Below, in pieces: positions 50,638-58,655 of a stretch of DNA of 58,655 bases. The stretch's first letter is position 1; the number at the start of each line of letters is the position of its first letter. The stretch lies in NCBI GenBank assembly GCA_026982395.1, contig JALSHD010000125.1, positions 1-58,655 on the forward strand, written 5' to 3'. The notes beneath the pieces were generated by a model. That model saw only the letters and a list, made by a program, of their open reading frames with translations. It was not told the DNA's origin and searched no databases. Both the position numbers and the translations under genes were made by a program. Source of the DNA: Chromatiales bacterium (GTDB lineage Bacteria > Pseudomonadota > Gammaproteobacteria > Thiohalospirales > Thiohalospiraceae).

Positions 50638-50713
50638 ATTAAAATTGAGTGCCTTAGGCAATAACAACCATAACCCACTGATTCTAAATAAAACGAGGGA
50701 GAAGGTTAAGCGA

Positions 50714-51169
50714 ATGAATACGTTAACACATGACACAGTTGCTGACTTTTTTATTAAGTTCGCACACGAACATGGCGATTGCCTTACTAACTTAAAACTC
50801 CAGAAGCTGGTTTATTATGCTCAAGCATGGAATTTGGCGCTTTACGACAAGCCCCTTTTTGAATCCGATTTTCAGGCATGGGTTCATGGCCCCGTTTGTC
50901 CTGAATTATATGCTAGGTTTAAGGGTTATCGATGGAAGCCAATTACCGAGCAGCCAGATTTGCCTGAAATTCCTGAAAACGTTAAAAAACACTTGATAGA
51001 TGTTTTTGAGGCCTATGAACGATACTCAGGATATCAACTTGAACAAATGACTCATGCAGAGGCTCCTTGGATTGATGCTCGCGACGGCATCCCTCTGGAT
51101 GAAGCGTCTAATGCTGTTATCTCCAAAGAATCAATGAAGGATTTTTATTCTAAACTTGCTGGTGAGTAG
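50714..51169 (+). CDS. Panacea/SocA-type antitoxin (DUF4065)
   Basis: A 151-residue protein of the Panacea (SocA-like, DUF4065) antitoxin domain. TNLKLQKLVYYAQAWNLAL and FQAWVHGPVCPELYARFKG are the family signatures. Known members neutralise many unrelated toxins encoded next door. The ATG at 50714 is chosen because the domain starts there; GAGGGAGAAGG lies upstream. The gene is AT-rich compared with the transporter genes around it. Confidence 0.88.
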   Translation: MNTLTHDTVADFFIKFAHEHGDCLTNLKLQKLVYYAQAWNLALYDKPLFESDFQAWVHGPVCPELYARFKGYRWKPITEQPDLPEIPENVKKHLIDVFEAYERYSGYQLEQMTHAEAPWIDARDGIPLDEASNAVISKESMKDFYSKLAGE

Positions 51170-51174
51170 CTTCT

Positions 51175-51603
51175 GTGGCGCGAAAAAAAATCAAACCTAC
51201 AAGAATTGAACAGAAGTCAGCTATACACCCAACACCGCTCACTATAGATAATGAAACCATTCGATTCTCATTTAAACATTTATCTCTTAACCATCCGAAA
51301 TTTTCACTAGAACGTAAAACGCACGAATACTTTAAAAAAGTATTAGAACGATTAAAAAGCATATCTTCTCTTAAAGCCTCAGAGGTATTCTCAAGTAGAT
51401 CTCCATCTCTTAGAGCTCATCCTATCGAATGGAGCGATACAACTGAGCAAGGTGGTTTTGAGCATTTAAACGAGCAACTCCGACAAGTACCAGCTTATCA
51501 ATTCCAGATATCTGCAAATGAGCATGGTCGAGTTCATGGCTTCATACTAGAGAACGTCTTTTTTATCATTTGGCTGGATCCAGAACACAAATTGTATGAC
51601 TAA
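51175..51603 (+). CDS. Putative toxin paired with the Panacea antitoxin
   Basis: A 142-residue basic protein of unknown family. The C-terminus HGRVHGFILENVFFIIWLDPEHKLYD resembles the ends of RelE/HigB-like mRNA-interferase folds, but I cannot assign it. The start is GTG at 51175, five bases after the antitoxin stop. Function as toxin is inferred from the operon position and size. Confidence 0.62.
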   Translation: MARKKIKPTRIEQKSAIHPTPLTIDNETIRFSFKHLSLNHPKFSLERKTHEYFKKVLERLKSISSLKASEVFSSRSPSLRAHPIEWSDTTEQGGFEHLNEQLRQVPAYQFQISANEHGRVHGFILENVFFIIWLDPEHKLYD

Positions 51604-51675: not shown

Positions 51676-51939
51676 ATGGGCGTAACAAGTGTAAGACTGC
51701 AACCTGAAATCGAGGATCCGCTGGAGCATCTGTCGAAAAAACTGGACAGAAGCAAGAACTACCTGATAAATCAGGCAATCAAGGAGTTTCTTGCGCGGCA
51801 GTCGCTGGAGGAGCTGCGTTGGGGGGAGACCCTCGAGGCGATCGATTCCGTCAGGGCAGGACGGTCGATCGATGAAAGGGCGGTCAATGAGTGGCTCGAG
51901 AGCTGGGGCGGAGAGAACGAACTCGAACCGCCCCGGTGA
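51676..51939 (+). CDS. CopG-type ribbon-helix-helix antitoxin
   Basis: An 87-residue antitoxin. The N-terminal TSVRLQPEIEDPLEHLSKKL with NYLINQAIKEFL is the ribbon-helix-helix DNA-binding domain; the C-terminal acidic helix likely binds the toxin. The start follows GGAGATGGTGAG. Its stop overlaps the toxin start (TGATG). Confidence 0.86.
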   Translation: MGVTSVRLQPEIEDPLEHLSKKLDRSKNYLINQAIKEFLARQSLEELRWGETLEAIDSVRAGRSIDERAVNEWLESWGGENELEPPR

Positions 51940-52220
51940 TGAAAATATCCTATTCACCCGAAGCAGTTGCCGATCTGGTTCGCCTCAGGGAGTTTATCGA
52001 AGTGAATAATCCGGATGCCGCCCGGTGCGTGGCAACAGCCCTGAAGAGAGGAATCGGCCAGCTCAAGACGTTTCCCCATATGGGGGTAGAGGTTCCGCAG
52101 GCGCCGAGTCCCAAAATGGTTCGGGATCTGATTATCGGAAAATATACGGTTCGTTACCTGCTGCGCTCCAGTGACATCTATATTCTGCGTGTCTGGCATC
52201 ACAGGGAGAACCGCTTATGA
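51939..52220 (+). CDS. RelE/ParE family toxin
   Basis: A 93-residue toxin. ISYSPEAVADLVRLREFI, KTFPHMGVEVP and IILRVWHHREN-type C-terminus (YILRVWHHRENRL) match the ParE/RelE fold; the residue set looks closer to ParE (gyrase inhibitor) than to the RNase subgroup. It is coupled to the CopG antitoxin and forms the second TA module inserted in the transporter cluster. Confidence 0.86.
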   Translation: MKISYSPEAVADLVRLREFIEVNNPDAARCVATALKRGIGQLKTFPHMGVEVPQAPSPKMVRDLIIGKYTVRYLLRSSDIYILRVWHHRENRL

Positions 52221-55051: not shown

Positions 55052-55560
55052 TTACTTCCATCGATAATGCACCTTGCATTTATTCAGCATCTTCCACGGC
55101 AGAAATCCCTCCTTTTGCATGCGGCCAACTATAATTGCTGCAGCAATGCCAATTTTTCCGGCAAATTTCTTGACACTCGAATAGGTGTTGCCAATGGATG
55201 CCGCCTCCTTGGCGTATCGGGGAGGAATCAGCAAATCACTGGCGAATTTGTCTGCCTCTCGCTCGTGCTCACCATTGAGGTCTTTGGTTTCGAGAAACAC
55301 CATTTTCTTGCCATGGAGCAGCAAATGGCCTGCCTCGTGAAAAAATGCGAACCAGAGATGATCGTTGGTCTTGTGGCGCAGGCTCAGCATCAGCAACGCC
55401 TTGTCGGGCGATAACCAACGGGTCGCACCGCTGGCCGGGCATCCCTTGGGCGCCGGGGCCAGCGCCACTCCCGTTGCCGCACAACGCTCAACCAGCCGTG
55501 GCACAAAGACTTTCCGGTAGTGGCTTGACAGCCCATATTCTGTCCCGACCCTTGAGCTCT
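55052..55560 (-). pseudogene. ImmA/IrrE metallopeptidase domain, 5'-truncated remnant
   Basis: Reading leftwards, HEAGHLLLHGKK is the HExxH zinc motif of ImmA/IrrE proteases. GEHEREADKFASDLLIP is the second conserved stretch. Related full-length proteins carry an N-terminal XRE/HigA-type helix-turn-helix. Here the frame runs back through RKVFVPRLVERCAATG to a TGA at about 55561 without reaching one. A GTG at 55504 would give 150 residues, so a shortened product is possible. I read it as a remnant of a larger antitoxin-like regulator. Confidence 0.66.
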
Positions 55561-55569
55561 CGCAACACT

Positions 55570-58146
55570 TTAATCATCGTCACGAGCATGCTTGGCCTGC
55601 TTTCGGTCAGCTTCCCGGTCATATGAGTCAGCCAGTTTCCTTAATGTAGCGCCGAACCGAGCGTAACCAGCTTCTTCAACTGCTTCTGCCTTCTGCCTCC
55701 ACCGCTGAGCCAGCTCCCTTTCCTGTCGCCCGGTCGGATCGACCCAGTGGACGCCCCTGGAGTTGTAAACTTCTGACTGAAACCCGTTCCTCATATCATC
55801 GGCGTCTCTCGCATTGAGTAGTTTTGCAACTTTTTCATCTATCCACAAGCCGCCCGGATCTTCAGGGCAATAGAACAGAACCTCGCCAACCTTAATCTTC
55901 GCTACCTCCAGATGGCCAGATTTGTCGCACTGCCCTTTTACCTCCTCAAACCACGCAATAAATTCTTGAGCAATAAAACTATCGTCATCGTGAAGCCCGG
56001 GTGGGCGTTTCCACTCACGTAGAAGACGCCAGGCGTTCATGGCTATGGATTTGGTTTCCTCATCGGCTGTTTCTTGTCTATCCGCCCCTTTTGGTCGATA
56101 AAGCAACCGTATTACTTTGCAGAAAAAATCTGGGTCGCTGGCCAGTTTCTGCTCCAGGAGTTTTGGTCTGGTATCGCCATCCATCAACGCCACACAAGCC
56201 CACTCCACCTTGAATAAGCCTTCAGGGTCGGTATCTGGATCCTCTTGCAGAGCCTTGATAAGTTTCAGAGCATAACGTTGGTTTAGAGTATTGCGGGGTT
56301 CATTGGAAGAGACGGAGTCAATCAAGGCGGTTATGGTCAAGGCATGATCTAGCGGCAACTTTACATGCTGACGGGCATACAGGCAATCCAAGGCCGCAAT
56401 GGGGCGGCCATATCTGAGTAACTTTTCAGCGGCATAGATGAGGTTTTCCTTGTCAAGGTACGGATTGACGTTCACATGCCGCCAATAAGATGCTTCTTCT
56501 TCCTCCAACCAAGCAGAGACATGCTCCCATGTATTATTATCAAACGGGAGACGAATCAGAAACTGATTTCGTTGCTTCCCATTCCATTGCTCCACAGGTA
56601 GTTGATCCAGCCACTTCGCACCCAGGTTTTGGTGTTTCTTCCAAACAAATCCATCAAGGAATCGGCCTATTTTGTCATTCTGTTCAAGCAGGTCTGGTAG
56701 TATCTTCAACTCGGCATTTGCATCCGCAATATTCGCGAAAGCCCGGCCGACTTGATAGGGTGAAGCAACAATCCCAGCAAAAGCCAGTACATACTCCAGG
56801 CTTCCGCCATTCCAGATCTCCGACACTGCCCGATTCCGCTTTTCTTCAAGCAAGTGCTCCTGCTCATTCCAGTCTCCGTCCTCTTCAAAAAGATCGAAGC
56901 TATTGTCGGTGAACAGGTGCTGGTAACGTCTTTCCGGAGATTCTGGTGAAATGGCTTTTGCTACATCCTCCAGCCTTTCGACCACATCCAAGGGTAGCGC
57001 CCAGTCTGCATCATGGTATCTGCGATGTTTTCGAGAGAAGCGCATAAGGCTCGACCAGATTGGAAGCTTACTCTCCTCACCCAAATTCCTTATAGCATCC
57101 GATGACAAGTAATCCACGACCTTGTCAAATGCTGGCTGCGGAAGATTATCCATTTCATCAACCAGCTCGGTCAGCCTGCCAATGTCTGCACAAGCCATCT
57201 CGACGGCCATTTCCGCGTACTTTGAAACCTGCTCACGGTACTCGGCGTGGGTCACCGATGGTTCCCAGTCATCAGTAATATCCATGAACCAGGATGGTCT
57301 GTGCGTGCCAGATGTTGTTTGATGTTGATTGGGTAACAGGCGCACGAGCACCCGCCAGGCAATAGCCGGATGATCGCACAGGATTGCCTTCATGCACGCC
57401 AACTGTTTTTCGAACGGTGCGAAGGTTTGTGGGTACCAGGGCAACAAAATCGATACCAAAGAATTATCCGGCCTGTTTGACCATCGGCCGCCCGGGTCAC
57501 GGGCGGCCAGATCAGCCAATAGCGTAGCGACTCTTACCAGATAGTCTTCGCTCCAGGCCAAGCCCTCCAGCGCCCACAAAAGACCGGTGATATAGTTACC
57601 CCCAAAAACTCCATCACCCTCCTGACGGAATAGCTCATCGAAAGGCGGGTCATCACCAAGCAGAGCATTCTGTACTGCGTCAAGGAACTCGTCGGGCGCG
57701 CCTTCCGCCACTGTTGGCAGCAATTGGCCGACACTTGCCCAGATGCGCCAATCGTTCTTCTCGAACAGTTCGCGGAGTATAAAAACCGCGGTCGAATGCG
57801 CCTTGTTTCGTGAGCAGTTCTTGAGCTCATCGCCTTTGTTCCCAAGCAGTGCTATGGTTTGCGCGATGCCTTCTCTCAGGTTTTGAGAATGCCTTAAACC
57901 TTTCCCGTACACTCCGGCAGCATATCTCTCACCCGTATTCATTCCGAACTGAGGGTCCATTTCCCCCAGGACATCAAGGGCACATGATTTAAATACATCA
58001 AGATGACTATCGAATATTCGTGCCCCGAATTGCTGCCAGGCCGCCAGACGTTCAACAATCTTCCAGCGGTTATCGCGATAATCTATGTAGCGCTCATCCT
58101 CCTGGATTTCATCGCGCAGGATGCCCGTCCATTCGTCAAAATTCAT
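55570..58146 (-). CDS. Large helical-repeat protein of unknown function
   Basis: An 858-residue acidic, tryptophan-rich soluble protein with no signal peptide, membrane helix or P-loop that I can find. The sequence is alpha-helical throughout, with HEAT/ARM-like spacing of hydrophobic residues (for example GLLWALEGLAWSEDYLVRVA). The C-terminus with YNSRGVHWVDPTG and QERELAQRWRQKAEAVEEAG recalls tails of large proteins found in defence and accessory islands; this is from memory and unverified. Its start overlaps the end of the HEPN-motif gene by 11 bases, so the two are probably made together. A scaffold or sensor role is speculative. Confidence 0.6.
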   Translation of the reverse strand: MNFDEWTGILRDEIQEDERYIDYRDNRWKIVERLAAWQQFGARIFDSHLDVFKSCALDVLGEMDPQFGMNTGERYAAGVYGKGLRHSQNLREGIAQTIALLGNKGDELKNCSRNKAHSTAVFILRELFEKNDWRIWASVGQLLPTVAEGAPDEFLDAVQNALLGDDPPFDELFRQEGDGVFGGNYITGLLWALEGLAWSEDYLVRVATLLADLAARDPGGRWSNRPDNSLVSILLPWYPQTFAPFEKQLACMKAILCDHPAIAWRVLVRLLPNQHQTTSGTHRPSWFMDITDDWEPSVTHAEYREQVSKYAEMAVEMACADIGRLTELVDEMDNLPQPAFDKVVDYLSSDAIRNLGEESKLPIWSSLMRFSRKHRRYHDADWALPLDVVERLEDVAKAISPESPERRYQHLFTDNSFDLFEEDGDWNEQEHLLEEKRNRAVSEIWNGGSLEYVLAFAGIVASPYQVGRAFANIADANAELKILPDLLEQNDKIGRFLDGFVWKKHQNLGAKWLDQLPVEQWNGKQRNQFLIRLPFDNNTWEHVSAWLEEEEASYWRHVNVNPYLDKENLIYAAEKLLRYGRPIAALDCLYARQHVKLPLDHALTITALIDSVSSNEPRNTLNQRYALKLIKALQEDPDTDPEGLFKVEWACVALMDGDTRPKLLEQKLASDPDFFCKVIRLLYRPKGADRQETADEETKSIAMNAWRLLREWKRPPGLHDDDSFIAQEFIAWFEEVKGQCDKSGHLEVAKIKVGEVLFYCPEDPGGLWIDEKVAKLLNARDADDMRNGFQSEVYNSRGVHWVDPTGRQERELAQRWRQKAEAVEEAGYARFGATLRKLADSYDREADRKQAKHARDDD

Positions 58147-58655
58147 CGACGATCCTCCTGACTATCTCCAGATCTGCTTCCTTTCTCTCATCCCACTGAC
58201 CAATCAGCGCGGCCGCCGCTATCGCTTTTGCCTGAGCCGGTGAATACTCCCTGGTCGAAGGCTCAGGGTATTCAGGAACGACAAGATCATCCGGTATGGT
58301 CGGAGTTGCTGTTCTCTTCGCCAGTTCCTCTTCTAGGATCAGCTCGATATTCGGCACGTCAAACAGTACGGAGAAAACCCAAAGCGCAGTCTGGCGCACG
58401 CCTTCCAGCGTGGTCTGCTCAGGAACCGCTGCGCCGCCCCCGTGATAATGCTCGTTTCTCTGATCGTGCTCCCAGACAATCTCTTCCTTTGACTTGTGTT
58501 CGGGTAGCCCTCTGCCCTTGTTCTCATAAAAGAAGAAATCAAGCCGGGTGTGGAAATTGTGCAGCCACTTCGTAACATCCACCTTCGGATAAGATTTGCC
58601 ACCTCTGTTTGCAGGGTTCAGTTTCAGGTAAGCGGCGATGGTTACCTCGATTGCA
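58136..58655 (-). CDS. HEPN-motif protein, 5' end outside the window
   Basis: The frame is open to the window edge, so at least 172 residues are present and the true start is missing; a GTG at 58582 could give a 148-residue product but the coding frame continues further upstream with family-like sequence. RNEHYH (58442-58459) matches the RNxxxH signature of HEPN RNases. The surrounding GRGLPEHKSKEEIVWEHDQ stretch is hydrophilic helical. It overlaps the following 858-residue protein by 11 bases, suggesting one transcript and a shared job, possibly host defence. Confidence 0.55.
   Translation of the reverse strand, partial: AIEVTIAAYLKLNPANRGGKSYPKVDVTKWLHNFHTRLDFFFYENKGRGLPEHKSKEEIVWEHDQRNEHYHGGGAAVPEQTTLEGVRQTALWVFSVLFDVPNIELILEEELAKRTATPTIPDDLVVPEYPEPSTREYSPAQAKAIAAAALIGQWDERKEADLEIVRRIVDEF

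What the first reader, a model, noticed from the sequence alone, without database searches (positions are those of the whole stretch)
55570..58655. HEPN-motif protein coupled to an 858-residue helical protein: candidate two-gene defence or abortive system
Two overlapping - strand genes (11-base overlap) at the edge of an accessory segment. The upstream protein carries RNEHYH, a good HEPN RNase signature; the downstream one is a very large helical-repeat protein without a visible enzymatic motif. HEPN effectors paired with large sensor or scaffold proteins are a recurring defence design. They sit beside a broken ImmA/IrrE gene and close to two TA modules. I do not recognise this exact pair as a described system. 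The 5' end of the HEPN gene is cut by the window, so an extra N-terminal domain may be hidden.
Basis: partly seen in the sequence, partly recalled or inferred. Interest (0 to 1): 0.72.

Follow-up and report, generated by a model that had tools for sequence, protein, structure and literature searches.

The report
HEPN nuclease plus split-domain sensor pair
Two overlapping bacterial genes make a predicted RNA-cutting HEPN toxin and a large helical protein that share one DNA-binding-type domain split between them; they look like a HEPN version of an unnamed family of mobile, probably anti-phage, proteins whose relatives carry DNA nucleases in the same place.

Summary
In detail: a 5'-truncated HEPN gene (58136-58655, -) and an 858-aa all-helical protein gene (55570-58146, -) overlap by 11 bases at a true contig end. 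A relative gives the full HEPN protein, 214 aa, with no extra N-terminal domain. The large protein belongs to a family without a Pfam, NCBIfam or PADLOC name, spread over proteobacterial chromosomes, plasmids and prophages. Most relatives are single 1180-1370-aa proteins: an N-terminal nuclease-like module (two unrelated kinds), then a winged helix, then the solenoid. One E. coli branch pairs the solenoid with the anti-phage adaptor GapS6a. Here the HEPN module takes the nuclease's place, and the split lies inside the winged helix: the HEPN protein's tail supplies helices 1-2, the large protein helix 3 and the wing. The fused reading restores the domain (50.7 bits) and folds at pLDDT about 79-97. 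Three genomes keep the split; the junction is the longest identical DNA run (34 nt) in the 3 kb shared with the most distant of them. Best reading: a two-polypeptide, HEPN-armed anti-phage system assembled by winged-helix complementation. Perfect Shine-Dalgarno spacing favours two products; a shifty stop (UUU UGA C) leaves a +1-frameshift fusion open. Anti-phage function is inferred.

The parts
58136..58655 (-). HEPN-protein gene, 5' end cut by the contig end (172 of an expected ~214 residues)
   Evidence: full-length relative L003:7367-8011 of 214 aa
58313..58655 (-). HEPN domain (helix 2 onward; helix 1 lies beyond the contig)
58442..58459 (-). RNEHYH, Rx4H HEPN RNase motif (polar N after R); R, N, H invariant in 7 relatives
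   Evidence: motif definition PMC3710099
58139..58240 (-). N-terminal half of the winged helix (helix 1, strand 1, helix 2) = C-terminal tail of the HEPN protein
58154..58159 (-). AGGAGG Shine-Dalgarno, 7 nt before the ATG of the large gene, kept in all three genomes
58135..58141 (-). TTT TGA C: stop of the HEPN gene in a shifty-stop context; +1 slip would join both frames (VDEF-DEW)
   Evidence: RF2 comparison PMC5009743
55570..58146 (-). 858-aa large protein gene (ATG, stop included)
58057..58146 (-). C-terminal half of the winged helix (helix 3 and wing strands) = N-terminus of the large protein
55573..58050 (-). all-alpha HEAT/ARM-like solenoid, the conserved family region (putative sensor/scaffold)

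Best explanation
The locus encodes a two-polypeptide anti-phage (probably growth-arresting) system. The upstream protein is a metal-independent HEPN endoribonuclease carrying the first half of a winged helix as a C-terminal docking tail. The downstream protein is a large HEAT/ARM-like solenoid whose N-terminus is the second half of the same winged helix. The two are translated in fixed proportion from one mRNA by translational coupling (AGGAGG, 7-nt spacer, ATG overlapping the upstream stop) and assemble by completing the winged helix. The solenoid senses an invader cue, or holds the RNase inactive until it does, and the HEPN domain then cleaves RNA. Shown (computed): shared domain split between genes, HEPN motif, solenoid fold, conservation of the unit, interchange of N-terminal modules in relatives, mobile/prophage setting of relatives. 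Inferred: coupling, complex formation, RNase activity, sensing, phage target.
For: Winged-helix HMM built only from 16 unsplit relatives scores the fused window reading at 50.7 bits and the HEPN tails alone at 18-29 bits; best of 6000 shuffles 11.4. An independent protein search joins HEPN residues 140-213 to a 1223-aa ORF (E 2.6e-6). [quoted passage not shown] Two-gene unit intact in three genomes under purifying selection; window/L002/L003 DNA homology stops with the end of the pair. The junction is the longest identical run (34 nt, next 20) between window and L003 at about 66-77% identity elsewhere. N-terminal module interchange on the same solenoid: Mrr-like nuclease, Cap4-like nuclease, GapS6a-type tag, HEPN. 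Relatives on conjugative plasmids, in a P2-like E. coli prophage next to gapS6a and beside Abi and superinfection-exclusion genes. HEPN motif features met.
Against: Only three HEPN-type copies were found. No phage-challenge data for any member of this solenoid family; the validated GAPS6 known to me pairs GapS6a with a different, TPR-PIN partner. HEPN Foldseek E-values do not pass 0.001. The HEPN subfamily also occurs away from this solenoid, in operons with an AAA ATPase and DUF6638. Phage records hold no copy. The complex was not modelled as two chains.
Confidence: 0.57

Rival explanations
1. The two ORFs are one gene expressed by +1 programmed frameshifting at UUU_UGA_C, as in release factor 2: most ribosomes stop and make the HEPN protein with a half winged helix, some slip and make a full HEPN-winged-helix-solenoid fusion like the single-gene relatives. 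The separate 858-aa protein may also be made from the internal ATG.
For: The fused product is collinear with single-gene relatives with a one-residue gap. UUU slips perfectly onto UUU, UGA is followed by C, an internal Shine-Dalgarno precedes it; RF2 genes use CUU_U, in a minority UUU_U, with UGA(C) (PMC5009743). All three genomes keep the site.
Against: AGGAGG sits 12 nt before the slip codon, whereas RF2 needs about 3 nt (own knowledge), and has the optimal 7-nt spacing for starting at the ATG; the ATG would be superfluous. Overlapping frames plus Shine-Dalgarno can explain the conserved DNA without slippage.
Confidence: 0.15
2. HEPN toxin with the large protein as its antitoxin or inhibitor: a toxin-antitoxin-like plasmid/island maintenance unit rather than a phage sensor.
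For: Toxin-like RNase directly upstream of an overlapping partner; TA genes (SocA, ParE) nearby in the window and an MqsA-type gene downstream in L002/L003.
Against: An 858-aa solenoid is far larger than usual antitoxins; relatives fuse the solenoid to nuclease-like modules or tag it with a GapS6a-type motif, as sensors are.
Confidence: 0.15
3. A decaying, frameshifted copy of a single-gene protein without function.
For: Single-gene relatives are the majority; the neighbouring ImmA gene is truncated.
Against: The same split in three genomes at 68-74% identity (most distant pair), dN/dS well below 1 on both sides, junction hyperconserved with an optimal Shine-Dalgarno and ATG.
Confidence: 0.03
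4. A non-defence regulator: the winged helix binds DNA or RNA and the HEPN domain acts in RNA processing.
For: Winged helix present; HEPN domains also serve RNA-processing and RNA-binding roles (PMC3710099).
Against: Sparse, patchy distribution (3 of 369 gammaproteobacterial genomes), plasmid and prophage homes of relatives, nuclease-for-HEPN replacement.
Confidence: 0.1

Closest known systems
Unnamed single-gene relatives: Mrr-like nuclease + degenerate NTPase-like region + winged helix + solenoid (L007, L008, plasmid and genome loci)
   Same: winged helix and whole solenoid homologous end to end (about 23-41% identity); accessory distribution
   Different: one polypeptide; nuclease-like module instead of HEPN; no split
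Cap4/DUF4297-like nuclease + winged helix + the same solenoid (E. coli EC96 genomic island, L045-L050, L054, L017)
   Same: includes the closest solenoids to the window after L002/L003 (45-48% identity)
   Different: different N-terminal module; single gene
GapS6a-paired branch (E. coli P2-like prophages, Buttiauxella, Photobacterium)
   Same: small upstream gene plus large winged-helix/solenoid protein, two genes in one unit
   Different: partner is GapS6a (NF047935), not HEPN; both proteins carry a QNHxGTGxNxxG tag, and no domain is split
GAPS6 with TPR-PIN partner
   Same: two-gene layout and RNase-type effector idea
   Different: partner solenoid not homologous (no hit with the family HMM); PIN (PF20698) instead of HEPN; no GapS6a in the window genome
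PD-Lambda-4_A (PADLOC)
   Same: weak hit to two fused relatives (E 5e-4), similar length and position
   Different: no hit to the window protein
RF2 (prfB) +1 frameshift cassette
   Same: pyrimidine-UU UGA C shifty stop and an internal Shine-Dalgarno
   Different: Shine-Dalgarno 12 nt rather than ~3 nt upstream; alternative ATG with ideal spacing

Membership tests
HEPN superfamily (RNase type) | Rx4-6H motif with a polar residue after R | tested here: met
   R-N-E-H-Y-H; R108, N109, H113 (L003 numbering) invariant in 7 relatives; definition PMC3710099
HEPN superfamily (RNase type) | conserved acidic residue in helix 2 | tested here: met
   E45 invariant, lies in modelled helix 30-52
HEPN superfamily (RNase type) | HEPN helical-bundle fold | tested here: inconclusive
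   many of the top Foldseek matches are HEPN (2hsb probability 0.99, TM 0.63 by target), but no E <= 0.001
HEPN superfamily (RNase type) | endoribonuclease activity | not testable with these tools
   needs protein and RNA in vitro or in cells
Effector-winged-helix-solenoid family defined here | homologous solenoid over its whole length | tested here: met
   alignments A2, A3, A7; search hits
Effector-winged-helix-solenoid family defined here | winged helix between effector module and solenoid | tested here: met
   present but divided between two genes
STAND/Avs sensors | NTPase domain with Walker A between effector and repeats | tested here: not met
   no NTPase in the pair; Walker A pattern absent in nearly all fused relatives, 3 pattern matches
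GAPS6 | GapS6a component | tested here: not met
   no NF047935 hit in the window proteins or anywhere in the window genome
GAPS6 | TPR-PIN partner | tested here: not met
   no PIN hit; TPR-PIN partners do not match the family HMM
PD-Lambda-4 | PD-Lambda-4_A homologue | tested here: not met
   no hit for the window protein; weak hit in two fused relatives only
MNT-HEPN toxin-antitoxin | adjacent minimal nucleotidyltransferase antitoxin | tested here: not met
   the gene downstream is the solenoid, no family hit; upstream in L003 is a transposase, no nucleotidyltransferase recognised by eye
RF2-type +1 programmed frameshift | slip codon + UGA C | tested here: met
   TTT TGA C in all three genomes
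RF2-type +1 programmed frameshift | Shine-Dalgarno about 3 nt before the slip codon | tested here: not met
   spacing is 12 nt
RF2-type +1 programmed frameshift | fusion protein made in cells | not testable with these tools
   needs protein analysis

The most novel reading that the evidence does not exclude
An RNA-cutting immune protein whose effector-sensor joint is set by translation: ribosomes stop in the middle of the winged helix (half-domain HEPN protein) or slip +1 at UUU_UGA_C to make the full fusion, so that release-factor shortage or termination stress during phage infection would itself change the amount of armed effector.
Probability: 0.08. Interest if true: 0.85.

Novelty: new variant of a known kind. 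Interest (0 to 1): 0.62.

Why it matters
It shows a widespread but unnamed solenoid family being armed with unrelated effectors (two nuclease-like kinds, a GapS6a adaptor, and here a HEPN RNase), and it shows effector and sensor separated inside a single folded domain, which makes domain complementation, or translational control of it, directly testable in a laboratory strain. It also gives a handle for finding more such systems: the solenoid and winged helix can be used as a search profile.

Tried and rejected
HEPN relatives in viral contigs and phage records: none. Exact junction DNA in viral contigs: none. Missing 5' end of the HEPN gene elsewhere in the own genome or in L002's genome: only the known 18 residues at the contig ends; both contigs break at the same base. 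Solved-structure sequence searches: nothing useful. Foldseek of the solenoid: only generic HEAT/ARM superhelices such as importins and CAND1 with low TM-scores, so no specific relative is claimed; viral structure library: nothing. Rfam near the junction: nothing. TTTT=F as frameshift code misread later codons, replaced by TGAC=D. The founding GAPS paper is not in the library; statements on validated GAPS6 rest on the NCBIfam name and my own knowledge. A decayed-gene reading was considered and rejected.

Full report
Observation. Two minus-strand ORFs, 58136-58654 (open at the edge) and 55570-58146, overlap by 11 bases. The window is a whole contig: G000 C125 is 58655 bases. Neither protein has a Pfam, PADLOC or NCBIfam hit.

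Relatives of the pair. A genome-contig scan found two more copies of the same two-gene unit, L002 (Chromatiales MAG) and L003 (gammaproteobacterial MAG), large proteins 70% and 68% identical. L003 is complete: its HEPN protein is 214 aa, so no extra N-terminal domain is hidden in the window copy. The window and L002 contigs begin at the same base of the HEPN gene, which I read as an assembly break at sequence shared by two genomes of one sample (inference). Window DNA matches L002 and L003 only as far as the end of the two genes, whereas L002 and L003 also share about 1.7 kb downstream with an MqsA-type antitoxin gene: the pair is the shared unit.

Relatives of the large protein. In 369 gammaproteobacterial genomes 8 carry a match to the family and only 3 carry the HEPN protein; a phylum sample gave 12 of 399. 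Plasmids gave 22 records, viral contigs 12, phage records none for the window protein. Most are single ORFs of about 1180-1370 aa. By motif, N-terminal modules are: Mrr-like nuclease followed by a region without Walker A (15 of 29 loci), a Cap4/DUF4297-like nuclease (5, plus L041 by eye), a short GapS6a-type tag (3), the rest unassigned by the pattern although several look Mrr-like. The nuclease names rest on motifs I recognise; Pfam gave no hit for them. In E. coli the tagged version lies in a P2-like prophage between ogr and the late-control D gene, directly after gapS6a, and NCBIfam confirms GapS6a (NF047935, E 1e-39). Other GapS6a genes are followed by an unrelated large partner, with a TPR-PIN type match in two of the cases looked at.

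The split lies inside one domain. The tail of the HEPN protein (AQAKAIAAAALIGQWDERKEADLEIVRRIVDEF) and the start of the large protein (DEWTGILRDEI...NRWKIVER) are one continuous segment in single-gene relatives; the alignment runs through the junction with a single one-residue gap. An HMM made from 16 unsplit relatives gives 50.7 bits to the joined window reading, 18-29 bits to the HEPN proteins alone, 11.4 bits at best to 6000 shuffled HEPN proteins. A plain protein search with the L003 HEPN protein independently hit a 1223-aa ORF through residues 140-213 (E 2.6e-6). AlphaFold of the joined window protein (pLDDT 83.5) shows a canonical winged helix, H139-151, E153-155, H159-168, H172-185, E190-193, E196-199, block pLDDT mostly 89-97 (79 in one block); residue 172 is the last of the HEPN gene. 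The remainder is an all-alpha superhelix, resembling HEAT/ARM proteins only generically. The HEPN part of that model is poor (block pLDDT 35-66), as expected for shallow alignment depth and a missing helix 1; the separate L003 HEPN model is better (74.3 overall; most blocks of the first 150 residues above 83).

HEPN assignment. Rx4H with N after R and an acidic residue in helix 2 are conserved in L003, window, L002 and four further relatives, fitting the published definition (PMC3710099). Foldseek lists 4nqf, 2hsb, HEPN-MNT toxins, sacsin HEPN and Csm6 among its matches, but none at E <= 0.001. The same HEPN type occurs in operons with an AAA ATPase and DUF6638, fused to a HATPase, and on Leptospira plasmids.

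Junction. AGGAGG-ATCGTCG-ATGAATTTTGAC: the Shine-Dalgarno is 7 nt from the ATG; read in the HEPN frame the end is GAA TTT TGA C. The 34-nt identical stretch there is the longest between window and L003 (next 20 nt), where identity elsewhere is 66-77%. Frames, Shine-Dalgarno and slip site together constrain this DNA, so the conservation proves a maintained junction, not which product is made. RF2 uses CUU_U, rarely UUU_U, before UGA(C) (PMC5009743), but with the Shine-Dalgarno much closer (own knowledge). I therefore favour translational coupling and two polypeptides, and keep frameshifting as the main rival.

Selection and exchange. dN/dS is about 0.1-0.18 on both genes for window versus L003 (HEPN dS 0.88, dN 0.15; large dS 1.9, dN 0.20). 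Window and L002 differ at only 11% of synonymous sites in the HEPN gene but at 64% in the large gene, with the change close to the junction: one of the two parts was exchanged. That is what one expects if sensor and effector halves are re-paired, though simple recombination explains it too.

Mechanism. Most likely the HEPN protein docks on the solenoid by completing the winged helix; the solenoid detects an invader signal; the HEPN RNase then cuts RNA and stops phage growth or the cell. Only the architecture, conservation and effector interchange are shown by computation; docking, activity and phage protection are inferred.

Literature. No paper found describes this pair. The modular effector-on-sensor logic and inactive STAND-type modules are described for other systems (PMC7159879, PMC8195603, PMC12839542).

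Noticed in passing
window 55052-55504 (-): 5'-truncated ImmA/IrrE metallopeptidase (HExxH kept), best PADLOC match the C-terminal part of PD-Lambda-2_B; its missing upstream part is where the solenoid gene now ends, as if the pair had inserted into or recombined with it.
   Followed up: partly
window 50645-51603 (+): SocA/Panacea-type antitoxin gene followed by a 142-aa ORF without family hit, a possible Panacea-partner toxin, lodged between opp-type transporter genes.
   Followed up: partly
window 51676-52220 (+): RHH antitoxin overlapping a ParE toxin gene.
   Followed up: partly
L002:3254-4756, L003:10754-12271: Directly downstream of the pair: 144/145-aa protein, MqsA-type antitoxin, ~170-aa protein; looks like an MqsRA toxin-antitoxin-chaperone set, only MqsA confirmed.
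   Followed up: partly
L058:1486-2199, L059:1477-2202, L060:1195-1920: The same HEPN subfamily sits in a conserved three-gene operon between an AAA-type ATPase and a DUF6638 protein, with gene starts overlapping or abutting the preceding stop.
   Followed up: no
L061:1489-3081 (-): GHKL/HATPase protein with this HEPN type fused at the C-terminus; the Methanomethylovorans plasmid copy (L030) lies beside an HSP90-family gene, echoing sacsin.
   Followed up: no
L068:1417-5118, L070:5001-8634: GapS6a genes paired with TPR-PIN type proteins; in Pseudomonas sp. FeN3W the PIN part seems split off into an overlapping ORF, a second possible split effector.
   Followed up: no
L062:5609-9182: P2-like prophage of E. 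coli carries gapS6a plus the solenoid gene between ogr and gene D, a likely defence-cargo spot.
   Followed up: partly
L024:4844-8661: Paracoccus plasmid copy: Mrr-like N-terminal module and the rest are separate ORFs, perhaps broken.
   Followed up: no
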